Origin: Diprion similis
Taxonomy: Eukaryota > Arthropoda > Insecta > Hymenoptera > Diprionidae
Length of the DNA: 64,000 bases
Assembly: GCF_021155765.1 (NCBI RefSeq)
Contig: NC_060115.1
Location: forward strand, 3,410,001-3,474,000
Direction of reading: 5' to 3'
Under the pieces are notes generated by a model that did no database searches, was not told the DNA's origin, and saw only the letters and a program-made list of their open reading frames with translations. This document shows positions 30,701-60,129 of this stretch, piece after piece. The stretch's first letter is position 1, and every line of letters begins with the position of its first letter. The translations under genes and the position numbers were made by a program.

Positions 30701-31483
30701 CATGCAGAGGCTGAACGAAATACGAAAATGTTTATGACTCGGTTAAATCTAGGGAATGCTTGTTATTTACCTCCATAAGATTGTAGAAGTGTACGGTGCA
30801 CTTGATAAGAGGACTTCTTTGATGCGCCAGAAAGGCGATTGGCGCCAGACTGACCATAGCCCTGATCTTGGAATTATACTCCGGCAGCTCACTCGCCATT
30901 ACGTAGAAAATCGTCGTGCCTTGGCTGTAACCGACGTAGTACAACGACGTGTGCCCCGTTACTTCGAGGATGTAGTCGATCATCGCTGGCAGATCGTAGT
31001 AGCCCATCTCGTGCCAACTTTCGGAAAGCGGATAATTTCTCGAATTTATACGCGTTTTCGAAACCTACCCTTTCACCATTTTTACGGTGAGAAAAAAAGG
31101 GAATAACGAAAGAGGAGATGTTTAAAGCTATTTAATATAAAACACTCTGACGGAAATTTCATATATGACAAAACCCAGATTATTTTTTTATTTTTATTTT
31201 TTATTTCTATTTTTTAACTTAAATCACCCTAAATTTAGTCAATTATTTAGATCTACGCACATATTTCGACATACTTATATGGGTTAATCATATGTTGCCC
31301 GAAAAGAGCTCACGTAATCGATTCCAGTTTTCAAATTATGCATGCTGTTTCTTAATCTGCAGTATTTTTCGACGCACCATTCTCTACACTCTTGACTCTA
31401 GCATTCAGTTATCTAACTATCTTTCACGCAGAGAATTGTACGTATATTCCAAAAGGTATTCAAGTATAACCTCATGTGCGAAA

Positions 31484-31518
<35 letters not shown>

Positions 31519-33080
31519 CGAGTTGGTCCATTAGGGATGGGTTAAACTGAAGCCACGCTGTTAATGGTACAGGCGACATTTCGAATGACAAAGGTTGGAT
31601 GCTTGCATATGCGAATTATAATGAGATTTGTGAAAGGGAACGTAAATTTACCTAAAGTCCCAAAACTGCTTGTCTTTGATCGTGTATTGTTTATGATCCT
31701 GAGAGTAGGCATTTCCTCGAGAGTTTCCAAGCCAAACGTCATAGCCACTGTCACACAATGCGTAAGCTGTAATAACGTCAACATTTGTAATTAGTTGGCA
31801 CACCATGGGGGAACATATAACAGCACAATGTATAGCAAGAACCTATCAGAAGTTGCAGTATTATTGTTATCGTTGTCTCCGATCATCTAGATAGATTTAC
31901 TGAAAATATATGCACATACGTGTGATCATTCATTTCACGTCTATCGTGGTCGCAAAAATTACGAAGTTAGAGAAGACATATGTGGCCGAAAGTGGAGAAT
32001 TCCTAATTGCCTCCTTTTTTTCAAAAAATTCAACTAGTTCTCGAGATATTTTCTCTCAAGAGATGTTTTGTACATTATGTACTGGGTACAATTTTCTTGA
32101 AGGTTGCCGACACTTAGCCAGCAGACTAGCATCCGAAATAACGTTTTAGGGCTGCACAGCGATTTCTGGAATGCCAAGTTATATCTCTACACCCGACTTA
32201 CAGCTGATGCGGAATCCAAAAAAATAAGAGGTTAGAGGAACAAAAAAATATTTCACATTCTACAACTCCTGTGATGAATATGTGGACTAAACTTTTAGCG
32301 TTAAATTTACAGCAATCGTGGAGAAATATAGAAAACTGATAATAAGAATTACAAAACCAACCGTAGAGTTACAGTATGCTTAGGAAGATCTACCACAATT
32401 GACGTAACTTTGACTCCAAAAAAGTGCTGTCCATATATTCATCACAAAAGATGTAAAATTTGTATTAAATATTTTTCCGTGTAGCTGCAATTGCGAGTCC
32501 ACGCCGGCTCTTAAGTCAGATAGAGATATCTTTTCACAAGTGAAAGTACGGTCCTGAAATGTAACTTGGATTGGTAATCTGCTTGAAGCAGGTCAGAAAC
32601 CTTCGACGAAATCGCTCAGGTATATATCGTACATATCAATTGTGACGCAGCGAATAAAAAACGGTAAATATTTTTGTCGCACTGGATAGAAGTGCCGGAA
32701 GTTTCTGTTTGCGACGGCCACGATAAATAATCAAGAATTCGATAGCAGGTCGTTTATTGGTTTACGGAAGTGCGCAGCTCACCGAGGGCCCTTTGCGGCC
32801 CAAGAAGAACAAAGTCAGCGGAGCTAGACAGAAGACCGTGGAGAACAAGTACAGGCGGCCTCTCATTCAACACGGTTGGAGATCCACGTGTTCCGGCAGC
32901 TGATGGTAAATCCTCACTCGATCCCGACGGTTCGGGACTAGGCTTGTCCATTGCAGTTGTTCCAATGGGTATCCTCTCGGACAAGGGCCGGGGAACGCGA
33001 TGCATTTCAAGACGATATCCATCTTTCGTCCAGGCATGATGAGTCTCGGCTGGATAACCGTGCAGTCTTATCAACTCGGG
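27751..33080 (-). CDS. Acid/neutral lipase (lipase 3-like, alpha/beta hydrolase), 5' exon missing
   Basis: Predicted extracellular or lysosomal lipase hydrolysing acylglycerols or steryl esters, of the insect lipase 3 / lysosomal acid lipase family. Six coding exons (transcript order): 32783-33080, 31652-31766, 30771-31017, 30015-30264, 29010-29152, 27751-27900. All junctions are GT-AG and all phases agree, giving 400 residues before the TAG. The first exon here opens with PELIRLHGYPAETHH, the conserved lipase start. It continues to VLVLHGLL (oxyanion region), GYDVWLGNSRG, the nucleophile elbow GYSQG, the acid region SENDFMTDPRDV and the catalytic histidine in FNHIDYLWG. A TAG lies in frame immediately before exon 33080, so at least one upstream exon with the start codon and signal peptide is missing from this model. 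A Ser/Pro-rich insert of about 40 residues sits between HRVPRP and PPVLVLHG. The nearest array boundary is only 2.7 kb downstream. Confidence 0.93.
31018..31651 (-). other. Lipase intron with tetranucleotide microsatellite
   Basis: Intron between the lipase exons ending FWDF-S and starting W-HEMGYY. It holds an AAAT tetranucleotide run at 31,481-31,518 (about nine repeats) and T-rich sequence near 31,180-31,215. No other feature was seen. Confidence 0.85.
31481..31518. repeat. (AAAT)n microsatellite
   Basis: About nine perfect AAAT/AATA units in the third lipase intron region. Likely length-polymorphic. Confidence 0.95.
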
Positions 33081-36941: not shown

Positions 36942-39900
36942 TTAGAGGATGTAGAAAATCCAGTAGACGGCATTGAACAGAAGGAAACTGACGGGAAAAA
37001 CAATTCTTGAATACTTGTCGATGATGTTAACGTCTTTAATCTTCGGCATTGAAGCTCGCAATACCGAAGCACCTCTTCGTAATGCGTGTAATACCTAGAA
37101 CAGATCGACACCAACCTCCGTTATCATATCTTAATGTTAGTCGAGACTTTCCGCTGTGAAACCGAGCCGTACAGAGTCAGTGATTGCTTAACGCTCGTAT
37201 ATAGCTGGAACTCGTGAGCACGAGATTAAATGCTTGACTTACAATTAGCCCGATGCTTTTCAGGCATAGATAAATCTCTTATTTCATGTCTAGGTTGATC
37301 GGTAGCTTGCTATACTCTCTTCGTGCTACTTGCAGCTCCTTGAGCGAAAGAGAAAGCCGGTTACGTACACTTCGGGTATCATCAGGCATTCTTGCTCGCA
37401 CTTACGGGTGTTCGCTGTCAGACATGAACGTAAGGAACGACTGACCGTTAAGCGAGGGGGATATTCGCTTGTTAGAATCGCAAACCACTTTGGAATGCGG
37501 TCACTTCAAAATCACTTGAAATCACTTGAAAAATCTATGAGTGAATACCCCCTCGCCGTTTAGCTTATGGAATGGATATGTAATTTGTATGATTACTTTG
37601 GGTTTGTGCTGCCTGGCGCCCCTGTATCGCAAGCCACTCGTTCTACAGTGCGTGTTGTATCCCGGAGGTCGAGAAATTCGGAAGCTTGGGGGAAATTTGG
37701 CCGGGTCGTGATCCCGAACTGGTACTCCTGCACCATCCGGAGCAGCCACGATTCCCGATCTGCTTCTTATGCTGGGCAATGGTGACATTCTCAGATCTTG
37801 GAGCTCTATGATATCTGCATCTGTCGATTCGGCAAATGGCGAGCTCGCTTCGCCACCTGAGCATGTTGACGTGTTACTCACGCAGATTTATGAAACGTGA
37901 CTATGCATGTAGAAGGAAATTTGTAGAAAATTTCCGAATGAATACAGTACGGATTGCTTGTATCAAGGTCCTTATCAAATGCCATTTAGACTAGCATCTC
38001 TGCGCGTCTACTGTACTACATGTATTTATTCGTTGACCAGTTCCACGGAGATATAACAACACGTTAGGTAGATAGATAAACAACGTATAAATATGGGTAC
38101 CAGTTTTTGCCGCGGTAACTGATTTTTTCTCCGTTCCTTCCTTCTTCTTAGTCTTCTTTTTAGCCCTGGCACCCCAGTATGTATAGTTTACAGCCGCGTA
38201 CTCTAGGAGGGCGGCGAATACAAAAACGAAACACATTACGAGATATATGTCGATCGCCTTCACGTAGCTTATTCTCGGCAAGGAACTCCTGACGCCCGTT
38301 GATATCGTAGTCATCGTCAGTACAGTGGTAATACCTGGAATTATAATACGTGGTTTTGTGTAATTTGGTTTCGTCTTCTAGATTCATTGCTCAGATATTT
38401 ATTGCAAATGAAAGATCAAAACCATTTCAAAGTCATCGTTTGGAAAATCAAAGTCCTCACGAATAAAGCATCTTAGGATCGTGAAAAACAACAACCGTAA
38501 AAGAATCTCTCGATGAAATCTTATCAATGATTGTTAGTATTTAACTAAAAATGGATGATATGGTAGGCGAGCCTTACCCAGTGCGACCCTGGCGCTGGTT
38601 GCCTCGTGGTTTATCCAGAAGCTGACCCAGCTAAGCATTACGATCAGAATGCTGGGTAGATAGGTTTGAAAGACAAAGTAACCGATATTTCTCTGCAGCT
38701 TGAAGCTGAGAGAAAGTCGCTGATAGATGCCAGTGGCCAATCTTTCCTTACGATCATTTGTCTCGTAGCCGATAATCGTGAATTGTGGCAACTCAGCTTC
38801 TTCGACACCACGGACCGGCGTCTCCTTCCAGTACATGACGACATCCAGGACCGTGTATCCATCTGTCCAGAATAATAACTCAGTTTAATGTCATTCATAT
38901 ATTTGTGCCGCCGTTGCAAAAACAAGAGAGTATTCGTATAACGTACAGCTTTCAATTTCGACAGTGCAATTTTGAGAGTCCAATGGATAATAGTGAAGAT
39001 CCATCATGCAGGCCAGGGTTGTTGTAAACCTCATTCCATAAGTGACAGATCCGTCCCCGGATAAACGCACCAGCTTGTTTCGCTCCGTCACATCATGTAG
39101 AAAGCTAAGATTGACAATCCATACCAACTAATTAGCATTATCTGTTTAGAATCAACATTTCATCGACCAATTACGTAAAGTACAAAATTTCCAAATGACC
39201 GACTGAAATAAACAATAATAATTTGACTGCTGAATATTTTTGTCACGATGTATACAGATTATCATCGTCTTTCAACCTTATATACGATAACTTACAACAG
39301 CCCACGTGCTCACTAGTAGCCAACTTTTTCTAACCAGACCCTTCCTAATATCAACCCCATGGTTAATATCCTTCATTCTCAAGTACCACGCGACTTTTTT
39401 TCCCCCACCTTGCTTACGTTACCCTCAAACTCATCCTCCTCATCTGGATTTTTTCCACCCTCTCCCCCAACTTCACTTTCCCTTCGACAAGTCAATCGCC
39501 CATCACCCTTCAGCAAGAACAGATGTGTACACTCAATCTCAATTTATACTCGCGTAAAATCCATAACTCTTGATTGCAATCTGTAACTCTCCACTTTCAT
39601 TTCATTCCTGTATGCATCAGTTGTATTGATCTAATATTTTGTAATTACAATATGCTATATAGCTACTTCTACCCTGCAAAAAAGAAAAAAATGAAACCAT
39701 TTAATCAGTGCTACATCATGTGCTTGGATCAGAAGGTCCAAGTTGGGGGAATGATATGGGAAAACTTTTGGTAAGTTATTTAACGAGGTCAGTTGGTGTG
39801 TAGCGACAACCTGCTGACTACCCCACTTACGCTTGCAAGTGGCCCAGCTTAAGGAGCACTATTCTACATGATCTGCGATTGACCCATATCCTAGTTTATC

Positions 39901-42210
39901 ATTTATGCATATGTACAGTGTGCATGTGTTAACCTATGGATTTATGTGTATCATCCATAGTTATAGCTATAGTTGGAGGCGTGTATCAAGCGCAAGGCAA
40001 GACTGGGGCAAGTTTTTTAAATCGATCGCTTTTACCCATTTTCAGAAAGGAGGTGCGGTGTTTGTATCTTACGTATGCCATGTACTAAATTGCAGATTTC
40101 AGGTAAATACAACAATATGTGGCACTCGTTTCTGATAAGCTTATACGTTAATCGAGGGTGAAGTAGTAAGTCTCATGCAGTGAGGTAAAAAAGAAAATCA
40201 AAAACTATATCCATCGACGTACCATGCTGACATGGTAATTATACCCATATAAGTAACATACCTGTTCTTATCATTAGCAAAGAAGGTATCAGGCACCCAA
40301 ATCTTTTCAGCAAAATCCCCACTAAGCGTCAGAATTTCTTCTTCATGCGAAAATGCCAACCTCTCATCTTTCCAGTACTGATTCAGATACATGGTTATGG
40401 TATAATCCTGCGACGAAGAAATCATCCAAACATCAATACGTGTACATTTAACCCATATATATAGCAAGTATTCCTAAGACTGACCATGTTAACTTCTGAT
40501 ATAGCGTCAAAACTGGCGATTGTCAAATCCATTCCGACTAAGAGTGGTTCACCTAAATGTATAAAGAAAATTTCAGAGGTCTTTATTTACCACAGACTTT
40601 CGTACTGCACTGAGCACTCATACCTGGGTATTAAAAAATCTTCAATATAGGTATATTGATACATGCTAAGTATAATGCGGAAGAATAATTTTCAGTATAC
40701 CGCCAAAGTTTGGTCTCAGCCGAATGTCATATCCCTCAAGAATCCTAGAAATCGTTTGGGTCACATTTTCCAATCTATCAGATATCCTAGTATCGGTGGT
40801 GGTTTCACTGCCCTCTCCAGTGCTCCTGTTTAAGGCATATATAATTTACGACGTATATTACGTATGTTGTACACATAGGTATGTATGTATCGTATTCTGA
40901 TATGAGTGTGTACAGGTAAATTATACATATAGGTATAAACGTGTAGTAAGTACCTAACTATCGATAAATAACATTCTATTGGTATGTCGATGAATATGCA
41001 TGTACTCTGTACGTATAAGTTACATGTGTGTGAGTGTGTGTCTGTACAACTGTGACATATAATGCATTGACACGCTCCTGACCCATGAGCTATGTTTCAT
41101 ATATGTATAAGGTCTTGAATGGCGCACTAAGCCTCTTTCAAAATAATGCCGTGAGATAGAACGTACTGCATGTAAACAACCATGCAGTTATGTGAAATCA
41201 AGATGCCTGGGGCATAAATTGAAATATTGGTTCTAGAAAACTATGTGACGGATGCTTACTTTCGGAGGTATAGAAAATTTATGTCGATGAGCTATTATGT
41301 ACCATATAGAATGATAGTTCTACATTTTACGGATGAATCTTTTTCAGTCTTGTAGTACTTCATCTTTGGAATAGTTATAAGTCTACACTAAAGATGAACT
41401 TCAGTATGTTTTATCATGTTGACTTACAATCGTCTGAGACAGCAGGCAGGTGTGTACTGTACGGTGGTTCTCGTAACAGTGTCTCTATTTCAATATTAGT
41501 ACAGAGTGTGTATTGTGATGAATAAATGTGTAATCTATTTTCCATGAAAAATCTCGATGGCATGGTGTGAGAACGTTTTTCATAGGAACAGCAAGGATAA
41601 TATCAGACCTCCGAATCACGGATTCTTCTGAAACTTATGGGGGTATTTACTGCGTCCAAAATATGAAGTTTCTGTTACTTTACTTAGTATATAATAAATC
41701 AGATTGTCGAAAATTCGCAATGCATATACTTCACTGTAGCTCTGAAGTAATAGTATATCCGTTTACACTTGAATCTATAAGATCCTGTCAGCGAAACTTC
41801 AACGGAGAAAATGAAATTTAATATATAAAACAAAAATACACAACAGGTTTCATTTATGATAGCATTGCATGTGAAGAATGTCCTATAAGCTAAAAGTATC
41901 TAGCTGTTCAGCAACGAATAAATTTCCCTGTATGCCTGTTCAGGTAAAAATACATGAAAGATGGTTTTTTCGTCTGGCTATAGGAGATTGTTTAATTTCC
42001 GTACAAATCTTTATGGTGTATCAGAACTTTAACGTCATCAGTTTACACAAACCGGTAGGGTTGGTTCTCATCCGAAGTAGATACAAAGATCTTGATTATA
42101 AATACATAAACGTATGTATGGAATATTGGTTAAGGCGTTACTCACCAAACTCTGCGATGTTCCAAGTACAGAAGAAGGAATATTAGAAGAGCGTGATGCT
42201 TCGTGAACAT
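36942..42210 (-). CDS. Lcch3: GABA-gated ion channel subunit LCCH3 (beta-like Cys-loop receptor)
   Basis: Plasma-membrane subunit of a GABA-gated channel, orthologous to Drosophila LCCH3. Nine coding exons: 42146-42210, 40701-40825, 40485-40552, 40262-40407, 38947-39104, 38578-38862, 38101-38334, 37597-37856, 36942-37094. These total 1,494 bp, 497 residues plus TAA. All junctions are GT-AG and all phases close. The ATG at 42,210 was chosen because it starts a good signal peptide ([19 protein letters not shown]) whose phase joins exon 2 as tryptophan. Then come the ligand-binding domain (RLENVTQ, a 68-bp exon ending [24 protein letters not shown]) and the Cys-loop C167-C181. TM1-TM3 include SARVALG at the start of TM2 and [16 protein letters not shown] after it. 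A basic loop (AKKKTKKKE) and a cytoplasmic [15 protein letters not shown] motif follow, then TM4 ending WIFYIL. Exon 8 uses the acceptor TGCTCAG at about 37,857, the only nearby one that keeps frame. The ATG lies 3.4 kb from that of divergent Grd. Confidence 0.96.
39105..40261 (-). other. Lcch3 intron 4
   Basis: Intron of 1,157 bp splitting the ligand-binding domain after FANDKN. It contains a pyrimidine-rich plus-strand stretch at about 39,390-39,490 (purine-rich in the transcript). No nested gene or alternative exon was recognised. Confidence 0.85.
40826..42145 (-). other. Lcch3 intron 1
   Basis: Intron of 1,320 bp separating the signal-peptide exon from the mature N-terminus. AT-rich, with GT-rich patches near 41,010-41,050. 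No coding signal was seen. Confidence 0.8.
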
Positions 42211-42989
42211 CTCGTCTAAAGTCCGCATAAATCTTGCAGCATGGAAGAAACACAAGGATGATTAGGTATACGTCCGATTAAAAAAGAATCAGCAGATCGA
42301 TTTCCATCCAAGTAGTTTATAGCGGGCACCTACATCCAACAGCATCATTAAGTTAATTAAAGTCATCCCAAAGTATTGACCTATCGATATATACCTACAC
42401 GTCCATCACGTGTGAGAATAGGATCAGTTATAGAATAGGAGCGTTCTCAATAATGCTGGAGATGACATTCTGGTAAATTGTATACCTTGGGTCCAGGTCG
42501 GACCTGCACCACCATTGCCACCTTATTACCTCTGGGGATGCTTTCATTCCAATCAGCGGCACTTTGGGGAACTCCTACGGAGACCGCATATCGACTCCGA
42601 AAACCGTTTTACATTCATCGACGCACCACCAACCACCGAGACACTGTACTACCTTCTCTCATTCATTCCCTATCCCTCGTATTTTCTCACAGAAAAACAG
42701 TGATACAGAGGAGAGAACGACACTGACGCAAATCCCGCATCGGCCTCGGGAAATCTCGGGCGAGAAGACACGAGCGCGCGCAACTCCAGGCCGCGCCGAG
42801 CGTCAGCATCCCTACAGCCCCGCTGCATCTATACACGGGGTGCGGGTCATACCTACATGTAGATATATGTATATACCATACCTACATTTATTTCATACCG
42901 ATACGAGCCTATACCCGTATAGGAACCCCTAATTATAAGCAAGTCAGGGTGGAAACCCATGGAAAAGTATCAGTTTCGGTGAGAACTGA

Positions 42990-42993
<4 letters not shown>

Positions 42994-43020
<27 letters not shown>
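42994..43020. repeat. Poly(T) run of 27
   Basis: Twenty-seven consecutive T residues in the Lcch3-Grd intergenic region. This could be the reverse-strand A-tail of a decayed retroelement or simple slippage; no element body was recognised. Confidence 0.9.
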
Positions 43021-43461
43021 CAATTTTTACTTTCAATGACTATATGTTTTTGAGACAACAGTATTTAAATAACAGGTTTTTAGGAAGATGTCGATCTGTC
43101 TGTCCCGGTAAAGTCTCGCGATGATTTTGTAAACGGATTGATGAAAAAATATAGGATTTAATTCAAATGATGGATATGAAAAATTGAATTCATTTTTAAG
43201 GCGATAAGTACCGTAAAAATACTCTTATTATGGCTTGTTTTCAATAATTTTGATTGGGTTCATTTGACCCTACATCAGTGGAATTTTTTTTTTTTTTATT
43301 TTTTTACCTCATTTTGGCGAATGAAGTTAATTACGGTATGTCATATATGTGTGTGTGTTCGAAAAATTAGATATCTAATACAAAATTACTTGGGGATTAT
43401 ACCATTTCCTCATATTTTTTCTGAGCTTGGTTATTCAGGTCCGCTTTCGCCTATGAAGCTA

Positions 43462-43487
43462 TTTTTTTTTTTTTTTTTTTTTTTTTT
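43462..43487. repeat. Poly(T) run of 26
   Basis: A second uninterrupted T run, 441 bp after the end of the first. A shorter interrupted run lies near 43,283-43,306. Confidence 0.9.
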
Positions 43488-45639
43488 GATACACTATTTA
43501 CAGTTTGGTGACAAAGAATTTCCTGAAAAAATTGAAAAGCACTCCGTAGGTACCTCAAAAGCTCTGAATATCTGTTACAAAAAATATCTACAAAGTTTCT
43601 GAGCTTGCGCGTGGAGACAACTCGACGGAGGGTACAGAAAGTAACTTGGCTCGCGAGTAATACAGCGGGAACAGACAGAAAGTTTAGCTGTTCCTAGAGC
43701 CACGAATTTCTCCAAGTATACATGTGATAATCAGTTCATGCTTTGGCGCGAAATTTTACTTTATCGTAACATATTTAAATATACTCAACTCCTCGGGCGT
43801 TCGGATGGTTTTAACGTGGTTTTGCGAAGCTTCAGCTTATTCCTCGAATTTAAACGAGTTGCGTGTACTTAATTAGATGGACACGTAGAATAGACGCAGT
43901 GAAAGTGATTTGATACATTCATAATGAACACGGTCGTAAGAATCTGGCGTGGAAATATTTTGACGAAACTTATTTTGTGAGTTGTTTTTATATTCGATGT
44001 TATTTTCCCAAGTACTTGTCGTATCGTGGTTGTTGATGTTGTTGTTCTCACTATTATTCCAGTAATAATTGTCATGATGTCTTAGCAGTTTATTCCATCG
44101 TATTATGTACGTTGAGGTAGAATTAACGAATGATAACAGCTATCAGGTACGCTACTTTTACATTGAGATTACAAGCTATTTTTGTCGCTGGTTGTTATAA
44201 TTAGAGATGAGAATATAGGTATAGATACTTTATACTTGTTCTTGCATCGAAATCAGCAGATACATGTCTGGATACATAAGATTCTTTCGCTTATTGCTTT
44301 TAGGCCAGCTATCAGACTGTCGTCAAGTCACTTTCTTGCAGGGAATACGTCTATTGTACAATAATATTACTTTTATACCCGATACTCCTTCTTGCATAAA
44401 TCTGACAGCCTATATCCCTTACAGAAAAAATAGTGTCGATGTAGAAATAATAGTTTTAGTCTCTGAATACTTCGTCGGCATTCGGTGTACTGGGAAATGC
44501 TGGTAAATACTATTATATGTATAAACACAAGTTGTAGGCGATTAATAAATATAACGGTATGCATGTGCGCTGTGTGTTAGAATACAAGGATTATAATAAT
44601 TATTGGTGGTGATAATTATTGGCAAAAGATTCGGTGACGCCGTCCAAAGGTAAAATTCACCAGGAGAATCACTTAAAAGCATAATTATGGCAATATCAAG
44701 ATTAGGACTTTAGTCTAAAAGTTGACCCCAGGTATACAGCCGAAAAATGAACGTGACAGACGTGAGGAGTTGGGGCTAAAAAAGAGGCCGAAAGTAGGTC
44801 TTGAAGCATCATGACGTCACTTGAATCGGGATGCTTCTGCTGCTGCTGCCTCAGCGACCGTGAAGTGCGCTTCAACCTGATGTCGGTTGAAACCTAAATT
44901 CATTGGTAAATAGCACATGTATGCTGAGGGGAAAAATGTATTAATAGTTAATTACACCAGATGCTATTTGACCCAAGCAAATACTCATCTTTGAGAAACT
45001 GTTACGAAAAAATTCTTTACTCTGTTTCAAGAAGCATTTATTGGAAATCGCGTCTGTATATGAGAAGAAAAAAAATATCCGCGAAAACGTTAAATTATAT
45101 ATTAGGTTAGACAATTGTGTGAATCTACATGGACAACTGCATGATAGCGACGTGGAATCCTCTTCTTATTATCACGCTTCATTTGGGCTCGATAGTTCCG
45201 AAATGTATGCAAGAGCATGGAAAGGGCACTCAAGTAGCTCTCGATTTTCTGAAAACTGCATGCCTTCGAGATCTGTAACACATAAGTTACAGGTGTGCAC
45301 ACAATACATTTCAAGGATGTATCCCCTATACTACACAGTATTCGGCAACTTCAACGAACATATCGGATCTTTATTCACAATCAGTTCCAATTTCTCCGGT
45401 CTATTATTTTTTAGTTAATAGTAATCCCGGTATATTCTATTTCTCTGATACCTGCAGTTACGAATTTGCGTACTTCATCATCTTCGACGCAATCACGGAC
45501 TATCCGTGTTTCACTAAAACTCCAGAGGATGATTTGTCTCGTTTCTTCTTGTTGCATAGCCGCTGCAGTGTCAATTCCCTAACCACCTGCGGTCCGATCT
45601 TCCAGCAAACATATCATGTATCTCGATTTCTGGTTGTAA

Positions 45640-48600
45640 ATGTTGATTACTACTTGTAAATTTTCCTTGCCTAGACTTCTGGTCTCTTTTTCATCGATTT
45701 GGTGCAGAAACGATCCCACGGGATCCGTGGAACTTGGATCTCTGGACTCACCCAACACCTCCAGTCTATCGGCAATAACATCACTGTCCTACAACGGGAT
45801 GTATTGGCATCCTATGTCCAAGAATAATAATAATGTTATAAAGCAATCCATCGACACAAGGATTGCCATGAAAACTGTTCTACCGGTGGCCGTGAGGGAA
45901 GGCAGATCAGTTGTGAACGACATGGTTTCAAAAAATATAACCATGGTTCTGGAAAACTTGTTGAAAAACTACGAGAACAACCAACTTCCCACCCATGGAA
46001 AAGGTTCAGCAATCAACCATTCCAGTCCGCTGTTCTCGCTTGTGTAGATAAATGTAATTTATAAATTTGGAATAGTTGTAGGAATTACCTTTACTATTTC
46101 CTAGTTTCGATGCTTACCTCATCGTTCTCTTGCTTCCGAAAAACTAGCTTCAGTGGCAAACATATATAATCACTCTGACCGCGGTATTATACAATAGAAC
46201 CGTATGACATAAGCTGGAAGTAAACAAAAACAGTATATAACAGTAATTTTTTCTATAGAAACGATTTTGTAGAATATTATCTATATAAGAACTTTTATTC
46301 TGCCACGTGAACTTCAACCCTATAAAATCTTGTCACAGTTAACTGTCAGTAAGACTGTTTGTCCCTACGACTTTCACATCCTTGGTACCCAGGGGTTTTC
46401 GAAAACGCTGATAACGTGTTGTTGAACTGAGAGTTAAAAAAAATCAAAATAGCTGAAATTGCATCTTCTCCGCATGCTTCCGTTTCCACGTCCAATTTTT
46501 TATTTTTGCCCAGCTCTATACCACGTGCCTGTGATGTGTGAAGTTTAACAAAATTGCAGGTACGCCAACCGTGGTAAAGACTAACATTCTCATCAGAAGT
46601 ATGGGTCCCGTTTCGGAACTTGACATGGTAAATTGCAGGCTGTTCGTTTTAACGAAAGAGAACCAGAAGGAGTGACGTTGGATTTAAATTTCCAGGATTA
46701 CTCGATGGATTGTTATTTTCGACAATACTGGCGCGACTCGCGACTCAGTTTTTTGGGACCAATAAAATCTTTGAGTCTCAGTATCAAAATGTTGGAAAGA
46801 ATTTGGAGACCAGACACTTATTTTTATAATGGAAAACACAGTTACGTTCACACGATAACCGTGCCAAACAAGTTACTACGTATTTCCCAGGATGGTGACA
46901 TTCTCTACTCGATGAGGTTTCGTATTCCACTTCTACCCACTGTTACTTTATCCTCACCGTACGTTTGCTAATCCCGATCAATTTACTTCATTGAACTCAT
47001 TGTGTATCATCCTATCTGACATTTATTTTTCGCACATCCCTGCAGGCTTACGATAAAAGCAAAGTGTCCAATGGAACTGAGAAATTTTCCGATGGATCGA
47101 CAATCCTGCCCTTTGATTTTGGGAAGCTGCAAGTATTTCCATAATGCACACTTGTGTACATTTTTTCCCCTCCTCCTCATCACTAGTACAAAATGATATG
47201 TAAATATTTTTTTTTTCTTTCTAAAAATGCTGCGACGATAAGGGATCATGATTATTGGAAGGCTATAAAACAACCTTTTCAGATGCCTACACATCAAGAC
47301 AGTTGATTTATGAATGGCAGCAGGGTGCCTCGGTAAACTTTGTACCAGGGATGACGCTTTCGCAATTCGACCTAATGGGCTCACCTTACCGTAACTTAAC
47401 CTTCGCCAGAAGTGAAGGTGACTTTTCGGTACTGCAGGTGTCCTTTAATCTGCAACGAAATACCGGTTACTTCCTTATCCAGGTGCGTGTAAATTTCCTG
47501 TTACCGCACGGTAAAACGGGTTATTGATGCCACTATTAGAAAAATTTCGGTATCGGTACCTACATTTTAACGATGAAACCGTAAAACTTACCGTTTTTCA
47601 TTCACACTAGTACCTACCCCAAGAAAATTTGGCTGTCTTTTGCACTACCCAATACATATAGCCTTGACGCTTTAATTGTTTATAATTATAATTAAAGCTG
47701 TAATAACTGAGTGCCTGATTTGCAGGTTTACGTACCGTGCGTGCTGATCGTTGTGCTGAGCTGGGTTTCATTTTGGATTCATCGCGAGGCGACTAGTGAC
47801 CGAGTGGGACTAGGTAAGAAGATTGTGAAATAAAAACTCGAGTACGTCTGTACGATGAATGGCCATTACAGAGTGCGTTGAAAACAAATAAATTTATATG
47901 TTGTCTGTATTTAACGAGGGCTTCCTCCTCGATGAATTATTTCAACCTTTGAACCCGACGGAATGATATTCCATGTGTATCACAATGAATCATGAATATT
48001 CAATCTTCTTATACAAGAACAATAAGTTGGTCTACATTTTTTCGTTCGATTCTTCTGAATTGAGTATATAAATTGTGGCTTACATTGAAGGAATAACAAC
48101 CGTGCTGACTTTGTCGACCATAAGTCTGGATTCACGTACAGACCTGCCAAAGGTCAGGTACGCTACCGCTCTCGACTGGTTCCTACTGATGAGCTTTGGT
48201 TACTGCATTGCAACTCTTTTGGAATTCGCGGGTGTCCATTACTTCACTAAGGTAATATCACCAAAACGTGGCATAAGATTAATAATTATATGACTTGGTG
48301 AGATCCTCCCGCACTGTCGTTCCAAGCGTTGAACAAATGGAACAAATGAGTTGCAAATCGAGAAGGTCATCACTTGCACACAGTGCATTAGCCTACAGCA
48401 GCGTGGGTACCATTGGCACACGGTCCGTATCCTACATTTAAAAAAAACTATGTATTTCCAGCCTTGTCACAAATCGTGTTTGGGTGCCGAATATCTTTTA
48501 GCCACAATACATCAGAAGCCTAATTTTTTCTAGCATTGAATGTATGCTGGTGTGCCGTAATTCCTGTGCTCCATAAGCTTTTATTATTTATTTGATTATC

Positions 48601-50250
48601 CTGTATCAAAATGCCGTTTGCCGTAATGCATATGGATTACAGAACCCTGCGTTGAAAATTCTCTGCGCCATTGATCTGCGTGTTATTGCGCTGCGTGATA
48701 TAATTCAAATACATACACATCATGTTACCCGTGTGCCACTGAAACATATTCCAGCAAGCTATGTCAGACATATTGTGCGGTCATTTTGATTAGGTACATA
48801 TAAATAATGATTCAGTTCATACTTTCCACAGTTTATCGTATACAAAAATGGGTGAGAATTGTTCAGTATTATTGTACGCAAGCATTAGCAATTGGTCACG
48901 AGATTTGTAACAAAAATCATGAATTTTCACAAAAAATGGAAAATATTAAAGCTTTATGTATTATTGATTGTGGAACGTGCGTGCATAATGTGACAAAACA
49001 TTGTCCGCATATTTGTGAAAGATAAAATTTCTCGAAAATGTATTAATGAAATCACGTGTTTGGAATGAACCGATAACACAAATATGCTTTTGACAGGGTA
49101 GAGACTGGTGTTATTTATTTAGCGTTGATTATTATAAGAGAACTTATATGCTGATTGACGCGGTGATGACTCGGTACCGCCTGTGCTATTAGCTCACTTT
49201 ATAAATGGTTCCTTACGACATGGCATTATGTATAGACATTTAAAATAGACATGATATGATTTCATCCCCGTTGCAGGTCGGGAGCGGTGAATTCTCTATT
49301 GATGAAGAGGATGATTGGGATGACGATTTCGCTTCGGTACCTCGTAGCTTGCGGATGAATCACAGACTGACATCCAAAAGGCGCGGTTTCCCGATTTCTT
49401 CAATATCTAATGTAGGTACACAGGTCAACAAATTTTATGCCACCAGTATTCCTAGAACGAATAAACGGATTGAGATGATTTGGCCCCAATCGATTAAGGT
49501 TCTTTTAAACCAAGAACTTTTAGATTTTTCATCTGATCGGTTCCATAGTTCTCAAGTTTATCAAATCACGTGTGCCTTTCACAGTACAGTGCTGTGCCAC
49601 TGTTTACTGACTACTTGTTATTGCTTTTGTAATATTGTGGAAATGTATTAGACTAAATTGAAACAGGGTTCAATCGATCTTTGTTTCACAGGGCACGATA
49701 GGCTCTACAACCAGCTTGAGTATCGGCTCACCCCAAGATGCTTCAAACGTGACGTCAATGGAAAGGCAGACGCAGACGGAGCGTATGTTGCCAAAATGGA
49801 GACAATTTCTATACTGTTTGGCTGGTGACGATGACTTCAGGTTAGTTTTTAGTTCCGGAAATGATTAAATTGATCCTCCATCATCCAAATATGTATATCC
49901 TTATACCACAGGAGCCATAAGGTATTCCACGTTCTTTCGACCTGGTTAAAATCATGACCCTCTCAGACCCGCTATCCGTTTAAACAATTATACGAAGAAG
50001 AAGAATAATTGTTGAAAATTCTTTACCCGACAGGAAGCAAAGACAACGAGAGGCTGCAGCCGGGATCTGCGACCGACTCGGGCAGTCCGTCAAGAGACAC
50101 GTGAACAGTGTATCGTACATTGACAGAGCAGCTAGAATCTGTTTCCCTGCTTCGTTCTGCCTCCTCAACATATGCTACTGGATGCTATACGTCACCTGGC
50201 AGGACGAGTTTAAATGGCAGGATCCACCGATCGCTTTTTTTTCTCACTGA
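45640..50250 (+). CDS. Grd: GABA/glycine-like receptor subunit GRD (Cys-loop channel)
   Basis: Plasma-membrane Cys-loop subunit orthologous to Drosophila GRD. Ten coding exons: 45640-46003, 46560-46627, 46696-46916, 47046-47128, 47283-47482, 47726-47813, 48091-48251, 49277-49411, 49692-49840, 50034-50250. These total 1,686 bp, 561 residues plus TGA, with all phases closing. ATG 45,640 gives a plausible signal peptide ([19 protein letters not shown]), but the extreme N-terminus is the least certain part. Diagnostic motifs are [43 protein letters not shown], the Cys-loop C225-C239, [17 protein letters not shown] at TM2 (residues 336-342) and [18 protein letters not shown]. An acidic cytoplasmic patch ([10 protein letters not shown]) and TM4 ([13 protein letters not shown]) follow. 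The donor of exon 4 is GC, and intron 2 is only 68 bp. Grd diverges from Lcch3 and is followed co-directionally by Ac13E. Confidence 0.96.
47129..47130 (+). other. Grd: Non-canonical GC splice donor of Grd exon 4
   Basis: The exon ends GGAAGCT and the intron starts GCAAGT. Joining here to the acceptor at 47,282 gives Ser-Tyr-Ala-Tyr in the expected place after the Cys-loop and keeps frame. The next GT (GCAA|GTATTT) would shift frame. GC donors with an otherwise strong AAGT context are a known minor class. Confidence 0.88.
48252..49276 (+). other. Grd intron 7
   Basis: Intron of 1,025 bp between the exon encoding TM2-TM3 and the cytoplasmic loop. AT-rich, with no nested gene seen. Confidence 0.85.
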
Positions 50251-53438: not shown

Positions 53439-56400
53439 ATGACTCCACCTCTGAGTCGCAAACGCGGTTCGTCTGTCAGCTTTACCCGAGCAAAAGACGA
53501 CGCTGAAGATACCGGAGATGAAATACAAATATCCCTTGCCCCTTACATCCAAACCTATCTGGCCCACAGTGGTCAAGGATCAGGATGCTGTGGCATAGGG
53601 TTACCGATTCCTTTTGAACGAGCCGCGCCAAGGTCTTGGTGGCACCCTAAGTTTGACTCCGAGATATTAGAGGATCAATTCAAGATGAGCGCATATCCTC
53701 AGATCAGGCTAAGGTTTAGGTAAGGCTCGTTAAAAACTCATGAAAGCATATATCTTTCAAACATGTGCCGAGGTTGAAACTTGCCTCGATTGTAAAATAA
53801 CTCATCTTCCTCGTGTCCTATATTACAGGTACGCTCTTGGCTATATCCTCCTCCTTTCCCTCTCTTGGCTGGTATACTTTATAGTTATTGAAATGGAAAG
53901 CACCGACACCTCTGTGTGGCCAGCAGGAGCGAGCATAGCAGCAGCCTTCGGAGCAGTCGGGGCAATGGCTCTTGCAGTTCTGTACTTCACCCATACTGAC
54001 TACTACCGCTTCTACGTGTTGCCGACATCTTTGCTGGTCGCATCCGTCTTGTGCTTCTTGTCGTTGCTGTTTGTCGCATTGGTACCCCCTCAGTCAGACC
54101 GACTGACCCGGGTAGGACACTTCGCCTTGTGTACGGAGATTTTACTTCTAATATACACAGTGATACCCATGCCGCTTTATGCCTGCGTAGGAATATGTTC
54201 CGTGTACTCAATTTCCTTTGAATTTCTCACGGCATACTTCTACAGTATTAACCAGTTCACACGGTCTACTGGCGACGAAGATATTAGTTCACATAACGAC
54301 TCATCAAATCACAGATTGAAATGGATTACTACGGAAAAATCTGATGTAAACGACTCAAACTTACCAACACTTGTTCATTCACATAGCAGCTACCTTGCAT
54401 CAAATTTAAGCAACCCTGCATCAGTAGCCCCTTTCATAAATTTGGAAAGCGATGCATCGACATGGATCATAAGAATATTAATGCAAGCATCTATACACCT
54501 GATCGGCCTTCACATTTTAATTATGACATTTGTTCGTATGCGTGGTACATTCATGAAAGTTGGACAGTCTTTGCTGGTCCGTCGCCAGCTTGAAATGGAA
54601 AAGCAGTTGAAAGAAAAGATGATCCATTCTGTTATGCCGCCGAAAGTTGCCGATTGGTTAATGGAGGAAAGCGAGCGAGAAAGGGAGCGGGAAGACTCAT
54701 TAAAAAAAGGCTCTATACCCTCGAACAACTCCGATATACGTTCGCTCTTTCGTCCCTTCAACATGCACTCGATGGAAAACGTCAGTATTTTATTCGCTGA
54801 CATTGTGGGATTTACCAAAATGAGCTCCAATAAAACTGCCGAGGAACTGGTGGCAATTTTAAATGATTTATTTGAAAGATTTGACGAGCTCTGTGCTCAT
54901 CACGGATGTGAAAAAATTTCAACCTTGGGTGACTGTTATTATTGTGTCAGTGGTTGTCCAGAGCCAAGGGCGGATCATGCGGGATGTTGCGTAGAAATGG
55001 GTCTTGGTATGTCAATTGTCTGTTTAACCAAGTTTGGCCTATTTAATGGCATACAATCTCGTCTTATATCTTTTATTAATGCAAATGTTTTCAGCAATGA
55101 TCGAAGCAATAAAGCAATTTGACATTGAGAGGCGAGAGGGCGTTAATATGCGTGTCGGAGTACACACTGGAACCGTTCTCTGTGGAATTGTCGGCACAAA
55201 GCGGTTTAAATTTGATGTATGGTCTAATGACGTTACACTAGCAAATAAACTTGAAAGTACCGGTAAACCCGGCAGGGTGCATCTCAGTGAGGCAACAATG
55301 AGTTTTCTTGGAGATGTATATCTGACTGAGGATGCCGATGCTGTCAATGGTAAAAAAATCCTTAGATACTTGCAAGTAATTTTTGAAAAACAGTGTCGAA
55401 AAAATGAGAAAATAGTTTGTCAAATTATGCTTCGATACTCCACCATAACAATAGATTCCATTACATTCAAATCGACAAACTCCAATATTGAGTTAAAAAA
55501 ATACATTGTAATATAAAATGCTCCTGGGTGACACACAAGTCGAAACGCATAGATTTCTAGTATAAACAGAAAACACTATGGAGAAAATTCAAAGTGGCAG
55601 GCGGTAACCCGTGATCCTTTGAAGATGACTTTCCATATCAAAAAGTATGCTTTCGTCCTGTGGGATGACATTTATAAAAGTTGGAATTCATTTAATGACA
55701 ATAGAGTGCCATTTCTTGAGTTATATTATTTTCGTTGCTGAGAAGTGCTATGCAACTATCTCGAAATGTGGATGAATTTAGGGTTTCCCTCACATAACCA
55801 GTCCGCCCATGGTGCCTGCAGAAAATTGACACTATCGATGTATAACTATACAATAATTAAAGTATAATGACACAAGTGCTGCGTTTTTTTCTTGCAGGAG
55901 TTAAGTCTTACTTCATAAGAGGTCGGAAAGCGGATCTAGTTACACAATTCATGACGAATATTAGTCCAACACCTTCGTCATCGCCACCAGCGCCACACAA
56001 TACTCGCCATCGGCTAGCCTCGTGCACCAATCAAGGAAAATCACCACGCCCCCATTATTTGCACATGGTCACAAGCCCTGCAAGCTATCGGATAAAAGCA
56101 AACTCACTACCAAGTATCCTTGATTCGGACAACGATGGGGATACTGGGGATGAAAAGGATGACCTCAACAAAAGTCCTACCTCAATAGCTAGCTACGGAA
56201 AGAAAAAAATTAAGCAAAAACCTTGGCGATATTTACAAAGGCAAAGGACCACAGAGGAAATGACGCCACTCGATAAGGGTGGAGGCAGCGAAGAGATAAC
56301 ACCATCTGTTAAATCATCCCGGGGACCCACTACACGCGCGGAGAAATTCACCAATGGGCATTATGATCAGGTATAACCAGTAGCGATTTAGTCTTCAACG

Positions 56401-59400
56401 ATTTTATTCTGATTTACTATGGTTTGAACAATTACCTTCCGTAATCTTGGTTACTGGATGTTTATAAATTTTATGCTACAGCGGACTCCATTCATCTACT
56501 TTCCTACTTGTAGAGAAATCTGCAATGACTGGCCAATATTTATTTTATTTTCAGCTGGCATTGGATAATGGCATTGAAAGGGATCCGATGCCAATATCGA
56601 ATTTGCCGCTTAATGCAAGCCAAGATGCAGCGAGTCAAGCACCATCAGTTTGTAGTAGAAAAGATTCTGGGATTCGTAGTACCAGTAGGCGTAGCAGTAT
56701 CCAGCAACAGGTATGATTAGATCGATGATACGAAATGTGTATAACTTCCTAGTGTTGCCTATGTATAATCAAGATGTTTTATAATACCTGCTGAACAGAT
56801 ACTTGAACGCACCCAGAGTCTGAATTGACTTTTCTTTTCCATTCTACAGCTGTTTCTGATGAACGGGATGGCCCAGGGAGACATATTGGGGCACAGGGTC
56901 AGTGGTTATTACACATCTAGCCAATCAACGTTGAACTCTACCCAAGATCAACCTGCGTCTAGCCCCCAATATCCGCCTGCGCCAGCGGTAACGGACTCTT
57001 TTGGTGCCTGCTTCCATAAACTTAGAAAACAATCCGACCTACAGTTGATCAGGCAAGTTAAGTAATTAATTGTAAAATCTGGGTATACATAACTATGTAC
57101 GCATAATAGGGTATGTCAAAAACTTACAAATTTTGATATACGACAAGAACATTCCGTAATTTTTCCCCTTTAAACAAAAACAAAAGGCTGTGAATGATTT
57201 TAACATAATCAAGAAACATTCAAAAATACCGCACTAACTCTGAAATTCATGCTCTTCGACAGATAAACTAAAGAAAGTTATATTCATAAGGGAGTTCACA
57301 CTTTGGATGCAAAACGATATCGCAATTGAAAAAGAAAACCCATCAACTGATTTTACTAATAACAATTATACATTTACAAAACTAGTCACGATATAAATTA
57401 ATTTTCAAACTCATTATCATTAAGTGAAAAAAGTTTCCTTATAGAAGAATCAATCATTTTCAAACTGACAATTTCACAGAGAATTCAGGGTTTCAGTGCC
57501 CAATTTAGAGAATGTCGTAATGATGTTTCAACCAAAGAATTATTCATTACTTACCAAATTATTTATTTCATTTTATTGAATTAAAGATATTTTATAGTTA
57601 TGAATATAAATCGAGGTTTTTGGCGCTGAATGTGATGACGAAATAATAAATCTTGTACTAGATTTATGGATAAAGCTGTCTCTACCATTTTTTAGAACAA
57701 ATTATCCTTAAAATCAGAAATCGACTTATATTCAGATTCAGAAAACTTGTAACCAGAAGAAAATACGGTATTTAAATTTTTATGGAGAACATCTTTTTGT
57801 ATAACTTTATTTTTTCCCAAGTAATTGTGTTCAATGTTCTAAATTTTTTATCATGCATAGTGCCTTGCATATAATTGAACTGATTTTATTAATTTTTCTT
57901 GATTTGTACACCAGCACTCGTTCACAAGTGCAAGCTTCTCCGCTTCATGATTAACCTTAAGCATGCAGTATTCTATAAATGTATGTATCGACGTATGTAA
58001 ACAGCTGACCTTTGAGCGAAAGTGCAGTTTGTGTGGGTGTCGGATCGCGTTACTCGTATTCGTGTTTGGTAACGGATAAATGATCCTGTATAATAGACAT
58101 GTGTATATTGATCGCAATTTATGCTGCTTCTACATACCTACACTTTCTGCATGGCATCCTATTATCACTATTTTGATCATTGATCATTTTATTATGATCA
58201 TACTGCGTGAATTGTGCTGATGCTTTACGAGATATACCAAGTTTCAGATTGAAGAATATTTAATCGCTTTTATATAATCTTTAGACAGGTATCTCGAATA
58301 ATGACTAAAATGTATTGATTCAATTTGATATTCTAACTTGTTTTTAAGTCAAAACTGCGTATGCCAACTATTGATACAAATTTTTTTTAAATGCATCAAG
58401 CCTCCTCAAGCGCAATTAGTGTACAAATCAATGAAAATGATTAAATTCACATATCAACTTCATATGAGGTGCAGACAAAATTTTTGCTTCTTGATAAATA
58501 CACATTAGAGAGATAATACGTGTATTATATGACAAATTCTCGAAGAACTTAGAAAGATAGAAAGCAAGTTGAGCAGACAATCGTCTTTATAATTGTAAAT
58601 GCGAACCGTATTGCTTCAGATGTGTCCAGGACAACGTGAGCTCGCAGCGTTCATACTTCGTAAAACCCCCATTGTCGAGCCTAACGCTGTTTTTCAAAAA
58701 TAAAGAATTGGAACAGGAGTACCGGGAAACAGCACACAAGTCCAGCGAAGGTGTTGGTGACAATCCGCCAACATTGGCAACATCCAGATTCAACACATAT
58801 TTCGACATATTAATATCAGCTCTGGTGCTTACCTCGGTCACTATATCCTTGTACCTGTTGTATCCACCTACGACATACTACATTGTATTCTCAACGTTAG
58901 CTACTATAATCCAGCTATTTGCCGTTTCCTTGTGCATAAGGCAAATTTTGCATCCCAATACGACGCACACAACGTTTACGCATAGAATATTCAAATTTTT
59001 CTCGAAATGGCATCCGTGGCACATATGCGGGGGTGTGCTCGTCAGCTTGCCAATTATTTCGATTTTAATAAACCTCACCCGCGACACGATTTTCATGCAA
59101 CAGAACCATATAGACTATTACTACAGCTACTTGGTGTTTGTTGGCTTGGTACACTTTTGTAATTTCACACAACTCAATTGCTGGATGAAGAACTTGCTCG
59201 TTACGCTTACAGGATTAGTGTTCATAGGCTTAATTGCTACTCACATATCTACCTACAACGATCATGATAGTAAAAATCTGGTACACCAGAATAACGAAGA
59301 ACGGCTTTATGAATCTGAAATTTATTTGGACATGGTATTACTTCTCCTTCTCGTATGGTTTCTCAATCGCGAATTCGAAATCAGTTATAGACTGAGCTTT

Positions 59401-60129
59401 CACGGAAACGCGGTTGCAGCAAGGGACAAGGCTAGGGTTCAGTCAATGAAGAATCAGGCTGACTGGCTCCTGCACAACATTATACCAAAGTATGTCGCCG
59501 ATCAATTAAAGACTACTGCCAAATATTCTCAAAACCATAAGTCTGTTGGGATTATATTTGCAAGTATTGTCAATTTCAACGAGCTCTATGATGAATCTTA
59601 TCTGGGGGGAAAAGAATACCTTCGCGTGCTGAATGAACTTATTGGCGATTTTGACGAGCTTCTGGAAAAGTCAGAATTTTCAAATGTGGAAAAAATCAAA
59701 ACAATCGGCAGTACATTCATGGCTGCAAGTGGTTTGAATCCTCAGGTACGGCAAAAAAACGAGCACAAGTGCACTCATTTGTTTCAACTTTTGGAATTTG
59801 CGGTAGCGATGCATAAAGTTATCTACGATTTCAATAGAGATCTCCTTGGATTTCAATTGATATTAAGGATTGGATATAATCACGGGGATGTAACTGCTGG
59901 TGTGATCGGTGCCACAAAGTTGTATTACGATATATGGGGGGATGCAGTAAACATAGCGTCGCGCATGGATTCAACTGGTGTTGCAGGAAGAATACAATTA
60001 GCAAGTAATTGCTTGGACGCACTTGCAGGGAGGTATGATTTCGAACCAAGGGGACAGGTATATGTAAAGGGTAAAGATAATATGGATGTGTTCTTATTGA
60101 TCGTCAAAGGTGCGAAAGGTGATAGTTGA
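53439..60129 (+). CDS. Ac13E: Membrane adenylyl cyclase, type 9-like (Ac13E orthologue)
   Basis: Plasma-membrane enzyme making cAMP from ATP, in the AC9 branch. Seven coding exons: 53439-53719, 53829-55006, 55095-55349, 55898-56370, 56555-56710, 56850-57052, 58620-60129. These total 4,056 bp, 1,351 residues plus TGA, close to human AC9. ATG 53,439 precedes the AC9-type N-terminus ([20 protein letters not shown]). Membrane cassette 1 starts at about residue 95. C1 has metal-binding aspartates at about 418 ([10 protein letters not shown]) and 462 (TLGDCYYCV), 44 apart as in the family. The linker holds [19 protein letters not shown] and [17 protein letters not shown]. Membrane cassette 2 lies at about 895-1060. 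C2 has serine where C1 has the first aspartate (FASIVNF), plus KIKTIG and [15 protein letters not shown] with the catalytic asparagine-arginine pair at about 1293/1297. The exon 6 donor is GC. A complete, apparently active class III cyclase. Confidence 0.97.
57053..57054 (+). other. Ac13E: Non-canonical GC splice donor of Ac13E exon 6
   Basis: The exon ends TTGATCAG and the intron begins GCAAGTTAAG. Joining to the acceptor at 58,619 gives QLIR-CVQDN, the conserved AC9 sequence, in frame. No GT alternative preserves it. The intron is 1,567 bp. Confidence 0.9.
57055..58619 (+). other. Ac13E intron 6
   Basis: The longest intron of the gene, AT-rich. No nested coding exon, repeat or RNA gene was recognised. 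Confidence 0.85.

What the first reader, a model, noticed from the sequence alone, without database searches (positions are those of the whole stretch)
36942..50250. Head-to-head Lcch3 and Grd: two partner GABA-receptor subunits with one shared upstream region
The sequence shows divergent genes with 3.4 kb between start codons. Drosophila LCCH3 and GRD are reported to form a heteromeric GABA-gated cation channel, yet as I recall they lie on different chromosomes there. Divergent pairing of a beta-like with an alpha-like subunit also resembles vertebrate GABA-A clusters, where beta genes face alpha genes. This could be a retained ancestral arrangement that keeps the two partners co-expressed, or an independent pairing.
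Basis: partly seen in the sequence, partly recalled or inferred. Interest (0 to 1): 0.75.

Follow-up and report, generated by a model that had tools for sequence, protein, structure and literature searches.

The report
Head-to-head GABA-receptor alpha and beta genes
In this insect genome the genes for two partner GABA-receptor subunits lie back to back around one shared stretch of DNA, an arrangement already described from worms to vertebrates, so it is a clear insect example of a known ancient pairing and not a new kind of thing.

Summary
Both genes have intact coding models: Lcch3 on the minus strand (9 coding exons, 42228-36942, 503 aa) and Grd on the plus strand (10 coding exons, 45640-50250, 561 aa). 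Their start codons are 3.4 kb apart, and no other gene was recognised between them. Lcch3 is beta-class and Grd alpha-class, so they separated before insects and vertebrates did; this is not a recent inverted duplication. Grd's closest paralogue, an 8916-type gene, lies about 0.8 Mb away on the same contig. The arrangement is not new: a 2016 eLife paper reports C. elegans lgc-37 (alpha) and gab-1 (beta) head-to-head, calls this organisation conserved from nematodes to vertebrates, and shows that their intergenic region drives similar expression both ways. Best reading: a retained ancient alpha/beta pair with partly shared regulation; the shared regulation is inferred. No other insect genome could be searched. 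Against tight co-expression: in a Drosophila visual-system dataset Lcch3 is nearly ubiquitous and Grd restricted. The Grd 5' end is unsettled, so the 3.4 kb is provisional.

The parts
36942..42228 (-). Lcch3 gene, beta-class GABA-receptor subunit; 9 coding exons, 503 aa; two in-frame ATGs at 42228 and 42210
   Evidence: gene model; best PDB matches GABA-A beta-1 to beta-3 (480 bits best; best without beta3 parts, delta, 345); tree
42146..42228 (-). Lcch3 exon 1 with signal-peptide-like N-terminus
   Evidence: hydrophobic peak 2.49
38578..38862 (-). Lcch3 exon with M1 and the SAR stretch before M2 (no PAR)
38101..38334 (-). Lcch3 exon with M2 and M3; its donor (gtaccc) is weak
42229..45639 (.). 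3,411-bp region between the two start codons; proposed shared 5' regulatory region
   Evidence: no other gene recognised
43060..43197 (.). about 140-bp dispersed repeat inside the intergenic region; 15 partial matches elsewhere in the genome at 70-77% identity fall mainly on it
   Evidence: close to a poly-T run 42994-43020
43997..44061 (+). candidate alternative first coding exon of Grd (signal-peptide-like), weak evidence only
   Evidence: matched or exceeded in 19 of 200 shuffles
45640..50250 (+). Grd gene, alpha-class GABA-receptor subunit; 10 coding exons, 561 aa
   Evidence: gene model; best PDB matches GABA-A alpha-1 to alpha-6 (354 bits best), then gamma-2 (311 best), glycine receptor and beta3 about 285; tree
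47726..47813 (+). Grd exon with the SDR stretch before M2 (Asp before the conserved Arg)
48091..48251 (+). Grd exon with M2 and M3

Best explanation
This is an insect copy of the ancient bilaterian GABA-A-type gene pair, one beta-class and one alpha-class subunit gene transcribed away from a common 5' region. Shown: the two intact coding models, their class and their orientation. Inferred: the order is inherited and not re-formed; the 3.4 kb between them holds two promoters plus enhancers read in both directions; the two subunits are made in overlapping sets of neurons and assemble into a heteromeric GABA-gated channel. The channel is probably cation-permeable, as reported for fly GRD+LCCH3, because Grd carries Asp where anion channels of the family carry Ala just before the conserved Arg of M2. 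Shared enhancers are more likely than one bidirectional core promoter, given the distance.
For: Gene models and orientation. Lcch3 to beta, Grd to alpha by PDB search and by a seven-sequence tree: Lcch3+human beta3 support 99, Grd+8916 97, with human alpha1 100. Published precedent: C. elegans lgc-37/gab-1 are head-to-head, said to be conserved from nematodes to vertebrates, and the 5-kb intergenic region in either orientation gives expression like the full locus except in AVE (PMC5065314, passages and section 23). Vertebrate alpha and beta genes are head-to-head (PMC1934366, passages). In Tribolium GRD, LCCH3 and 8916 are all on linkage group 4, though so is HisCl1 (PMC2064938, passages with Table 2); here Lcch3, Grd and 8916 are all on contig C11 and the Rdl-type gene is on C4. 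Pore residues read from the alignment: Grd SDR, 8916 ADR, Lcch3 SAR, Rdl PAR. Fly GRD+LCCH3 forming GABA-gated cation channels: passages of PMC2064938 and PMC7034979, the latter citing Gisselmann 2004; that paper itself was not held.
Against: No other insect genome could be compared, so retention rests on published statements about other phyla plus the tree. Tribolium gives only the same linkage group, not adjacency or orientation. In the Drosophila visual-system dataset Rdl and Lcch3 are nearly ubiquitous while Grd and CG8916 are in a minority of cell types, so Lcch3 is not tied to Grd there. The intergenic region shows no positive sign of a bidirectional promoter: a GC-rich bump (0.48-0.54 at 42401-42800) lies on the Lcch3 side only, repeats are short, and it contains a dispersed repeat. 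TSSs are not mapped. I had no expression data for this organism.
Confidence: 0.58

Rival explanations
1. The order is inherited but only by inertia: the pair has no shared regulation, each gene has its own promoter and enhancers, and nothing selects for the linkage.
For: 3.4 kb between start codons is more than a typical bidirectional promoter; a dispersed repeat sits in the gap; broad Lcch3 and restricted Grd expression in the fly.
Against: In the worm the intergenic region drives both genes in nearly the same cells. The two subunits are reported partners in one channel.
Confidence: 0.3
2. The pair is a re-formed (convergent) neighbourhood: an old alpha-class gene moved next to Lcch3 in the lineage of this insect, so the resemblance to worm and vertebrate pairs is coincidence.
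Against: Same order and orientation of the same two classes reported in nematodes and vertebrates; GRD, LCCH3 and 8916 on one linkage group in Tribolium. Random divergent adjacency of these two old genes is improbable.
Confidence: 0.1
3. A recent inverted tandem duplication gave two look-alike genes.
For: Both belong to the same superfamily and lie back to back.
Against: Core identity is only 43%, Lcch3 is 63% identical to human beta3 and Grd 48% to human alpha1, and the tree places them in different classes with support 99 and 100.
Confidence: 0.01

Closest known systems
C. elegans gab-1 / lgc-37 head-to-head GABA-A beta/alpha pair (PMC5065314; passages and section 23 seen)
   Same: One beta-class and one alpha-class subunit gene, divergent, with a shared 5' intergenic region of a few kb (5 kb there, 3.4 kb here).
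   Different: Shared regulation was shown there by reporters and is only inferred here.
Vertebrate GABA-A receptor clusters of alpha, beta and gamma genes (PMC1934366; passages seen)
   Same: Beta and alpha genes head-to-head.
   Different: Clusters there have further members and the human chromosome 5 one spans 500-700 kb; here two compact genes stand alone and the second alpha-like gene (8916) is 0.8 Mb off.
Insect LCCH3 and GRD subunits (Drosophila, Tribolium; PMC2064938, passages seen)
   Same: Absence of PAR before M2 in both; same classes.
   Different: No passage I saw names them as a divergent pair in an insect; Tribolium is reported only as the same linkage group. PMC5065314 does say that alpha and beta genes are always head-to-head in all animal genomes, without naming these two in the passages seen.
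nAChR subunit clusters of insects (PMC2064938, passages seen)
   Same: Partner receptor subunits clustered, with clustering proposed to aid coordinated expression and co-assembly.
   Different: Different receptor class.

Membership tests
Head-to-head GABA-A alpha/beta gene pair | One member is beta-class | tested here: met
   Lcch3 best with GABA-A beta1-3, clade with beta3 support 99
Head-to-head GABA-A alpha/beta gene pair | The other member is alpha-class | tested here: met
   Grd best with GABA-A alpha1-6, clade with 8916 and alpha1 support 100
Head-to-head GABA-A alpha/beta gene pair | Adjacent and divergently transcribed with 5' ends facing | tested here: met
   no other gene recognised between them, (10 of 11 ORFs of at least 80 aa tested)
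Head-to-head GABA-A alpha/beta gene pair | Intergenic region drives both genes in the same cells | not testable with these tools
   no expression data for this organism; shown in C. elegans
Head-to-head GABA-A alpha/beta gene pair | Gene order inherited from a common ancestor | not testable with these tools
   no other animal genome could be searched; rests on literature
Insect LCCH3 | Beta-class subunit without PAR before M2 | tested here: met
   ATSARVALG; absence of PAR in LCCH3 from PMC2064938
Insect GRD (as against 8916) | Alpha-class, no PAR, distinct from the 8916 paralogue | tested here: inconclusive
   two alpha-class paralogues 60% identical; which one is GRD and which 8916 was decided by M2 sequences recalled, not from a call
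GABA-gated cation channel GRD+LCCH3 | Co-assembly and cation permeability | not testable with these tools
   reported for Drosophila, passages; Asp before the M2 Arg in Grd
Bidirectional-promoter gene pair | Transcription starts less than 1 kb apart (definition seen in the abstract start of PMC2670823 in the listing) | tested here: inconclusive
   start codons 3.4 kb apart; TSSs and Grd 5' end unresolved

The most novel reading that the evidence does not exclude
The beta/alpha divergent unit of the bilaterian ancestor survives in this insect although the receptor it encodes has changed ion selectivity (GABA-gated cation channel), so the shared regulation would have outlasted the original inhibitory role. 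Fly lineages in which Grd has left Lcch3 (recalled, to be confirmed) would then be a natural experiment: the pair should be tightly co-expressed where linked and uncoupled where split.
Probability: 0.4. Interest if true: 0.55.

Novelty: new member of a known kind. Interest (0 to 1): 0.33.

Why it matters
It adds an insect case, with the genes worked out exon by exon, to a gene order already proposed to be ancestral in animals, and does so for a pair whose product in flies is an unusual GABA-gated cation channel. If linked and unlinked insects can be compared, the old idea that the linkage exists to keep alpha and beta subunits co-expressed becomes directly testable. On its own it confirms a known pattern.

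Tried and rejected
Recent inverted duplication: rejected by the tree and identities. Misnaming of 8916 as Grd: the genome holds a second alpha-class gene at C11:2,639,850-2,649,978 with a different M2; the names rest on recalled M2 sequences. Another gene in the gap: no Pfam family in 10 of the 11 ORFs of at least 80 aa, no tRNA, no Rfam match. Intergenic repeats: poly-T runs, short direct pairs and imperfect inverted pairs of at most 30 nt. CpG and GC: one GC-rich bump near Lcch3 only. Upstream first exon for Grd: candidate found, equalled in 19 of 200 shuffles. Intron positions: Grd, 8916 and, as far as its pieces show, Rdl share the SR/LT boundary and Lcch3 does not (read by eye); this does not help to date the pair. 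Relatives in viral contigs: none of 18 pattern matches was confirmed.

Literature; 46 papers hold at least three of LCCH3, GRD, GABA receptor, head-to-head; 30 were listed, most terms first, and none of these has head-to-head, so none of the 46 holds all four. Searches (1 paper; 20 of 58 listed; 14 of 14 listed; 3 papers; 1 paper; 20 of 187 listed; 20 of 364 listed; 0 papers). Opened for passages: PMC2064938, PMC1934366, PMC5065314 (also section 23), PMC6421076, PMC11275251, PMC7503973, PMC7034979, PMC4195910; apart from PMC5065314 none of the passages I saw describes an alpha/beta pair in an invertebrate. Several listed papers that name both genes were not opened (for example PMC4938653, PMC9146934, PMC4569296, PMC11203581). 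One search was uninformative (25 of 15,360 listed, none of the 25 with LCCH3). Darlison 2005 and Tsang 2007 are known to me only as cited in PMC5065314; the one id I tried for Tsang 2007 was recalled and not held.

Change made on checking: confidence in the best explanation was lowered from a drafted 0.78 to 0.58, because the drafted odds did not add up with the inertia rival and because Tribolium linkage group 4 also holds HisCl1, which weakens that evidence. Retention alone, without shared regulation, I put near 0.88.

Full report
What is there. The window lies at C11:3,410,001-3,474,000 of a 269-Mb, 60-contig genome whose gene content is that of an insect (inference). Reading the sequence and joining exons at splice sites gave two complete coding models. 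Lcch3 runs on the minus strand from 42228 to 36942 in nine coding exons, with all eight introns GT-AG, 503 aa. Grd runs on the plus strand from 45640 to 50250 in ten coding exons, eight of nine introns GT-AG and one GC-AG, 561 aa. Three donors are weak (Lcch3 gtaccc; Grd gttcag and gtttcg), and no transcript was at hand. The coordinates of the finding match the coding ends of both genes.

No other gene was recognised there: no Pfam family in 10 of the 11 ORFs of at least 80 aa, no tRNA, no Rfam family over its threshold. A search of the own genome with this stretch returned 17 matches: itself and 16 partial ones. Fifteen of the 16 are 70-77% identical and fall mainly on about 140 bp at 43060-43197; the sixteenth is a 37-bp piece at 92%. 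So a dispersed repeat has settled there. A GC-rich bump (0.48-0.54) lies at 42401-42800, on the Lcch3 side only, and repeats are limited to poly-T runs and short pairs.

The 5' end of Grd is not settled. The ATG at 45640 gives a weakly hydrophobic N-terminus (1.31 on the scale used, against 2.49 for Lcch3). A candidate upstream exon, 43997-44061, would give a good signal peptide if spliced to 45675, 45708 or 45765 and would shorten the gap to about 1.8 kb, but 19 of 200 first-order shuffles do as well. I treat it as a lead only.

Classes and age. Against the PDB (best 60 of 315 matches shown), Lcch3 matches GABA-A beta1-3 best (480 bits; beta3 chimeras with alpha5 about 406; best without beta3 parts, delta, 345). 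Grd (best 60 of 316 shown) matches alpha1-6 best (354 bits), then gamma-2 (311), with glycine receptor and beta3 about 285. A second alpha-like gene on the same contig, C11:2,639,850-2,649,978 (minus strand, partial model of six exons), also matches alpha best (348 bits). In a seven-sequence tree with the genome's own Rdl and GluCl (both partial cores) and human alpha1 and beta3, Lcch3 joins beta3 (support 99), Grd joins the second alpha-like gene (97), and these join alpha1 (100); the deeper node is weak (65). Core identities: Lcch3-Grd 43%, Lcch3-beta3 63%, Lcch3-Rdl 51%, Grd-alpha1 48%, Grd-8916 60%. The split between the neighbours therefore predates the split of insects and vertebrates, and a young inverted duplication is excluded. 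The names Grd, 8916 and Rdl for genes of this genome rest on M2 sequences that I recall, not on a call.

Linkage. Lcch3, Grd and 8916 are on one contig, the 8916-type gene 0.8 Mb from the pair, while the Rdl-type gene is on C4. In Tribolium GRD, LCCH3 and 8916 are all on linkage group 4, and so is HisCl1 (PMC2064938, passages including Table 2). Those passages do not say whether the genes are adjacent.

Prior knowledge. PMC5065314 (passages and section 23) states that C. [quoted passage not shown] It reports that the shared 5-kb region in either orientation gives expression like the full locus, with AVE as the exception (data not shown there). PMC1934366 (passages) describes the vertebrate head-to-head alpha and beta genes. 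So the arrangement, and the idea that it ensures co-expression, are published.

How it most likely works. Shown: two intact partner coding models, divergent, with facing 5' ends. Inferred: shared enhancers in the gap act on two promoters, the products meet in the same neurons and assemble. Reported in the fly: GRD+LCCH3 form GABA-gated cation channels (passages of PMC2064938, and PMC7034979; the original paper was not held). In the alignment Grd has Asp and Lcch3 Ala at the place just before the conserved M2 Arg; the 8916-type gene also has Asp, and Rdl has PAR. An acidic residue there fits cation passage (knowledge of the superfamily, recalled).

Evidence against. In the Drosophila visual-system dataset Lcch3 and Rdl are expressed in nearly all neurons and Grd and CG8916 in a minority of cell types; L1 and L2 express Grd, Lcch3 and CG8916 but not significant Rdl (PMC7034979, passages). 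Strict co-expression is therefore not the rule in that fly. No other insect genome could be searched, so conservation within insects remains untested here, and a scan of viral contigs for stray insect DNA found nothing. A genome-wide protein search for further alpha-like genes did not complete; that no third one exists rests on the domain searches, in which only the best candidates are scored and not every place was classified.

Verdict. A real and cleanly resolved insect instance of a known, probably ancestral, gene pair; retention is likely (about 0.88), shared regulation plausible (0.58 for both together), novelty modest.

Noticed in passing
window 1-24727 and L016 1-10000 (C11:3,400,001-3,434,727): Satellite array with a 304-bp unit, about 81 copies in the window and 33 more in L016, at least 34.7 kb beside genes; none called in L017.
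   Followed up: partly
window 53734-60126: Adenylate cyclase gene downstream of Grd, same strand, closest in the PDB to adenylate cyclase 9 (238 bits against 122 for type 8). From recall the fly counterpart would be Ac13E on the X, near Lcch3; if so, Lcch3 and Ac13E stayed together in the fly and Grd left.
   Followed up: partly
window 30735-33080: Minus-strand lipase-like gene pieces (Abhydrolase_1 and Abhydro_lipase) between the satellite and Lcch3.
   Followed up: no
L013 4444-7436 (C11:3,478,444-3,481,436): Exportin-5-type gene on the minus strand (Pfam Exportin-5, Xpo1, IBN_N), followed by WD40-like ORFs in L013-L014 that look like Nup37 and Gemin5 (by eye and recall).
   Followed up: no
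G000 C2:20,437,312-20,463,001: Run of several similar cys-loop receptor ligand-binding exons on one strand within 26 kb, possibly a tandem expansion of divergent subunits.
   Followed up: no
L001-L002 (C11:2,639,850-2,649,978): 8916-type subunit carries Asp before the M2 Arg (ATADR) like Grd, so it may also favour cations.
   Followed up: partly
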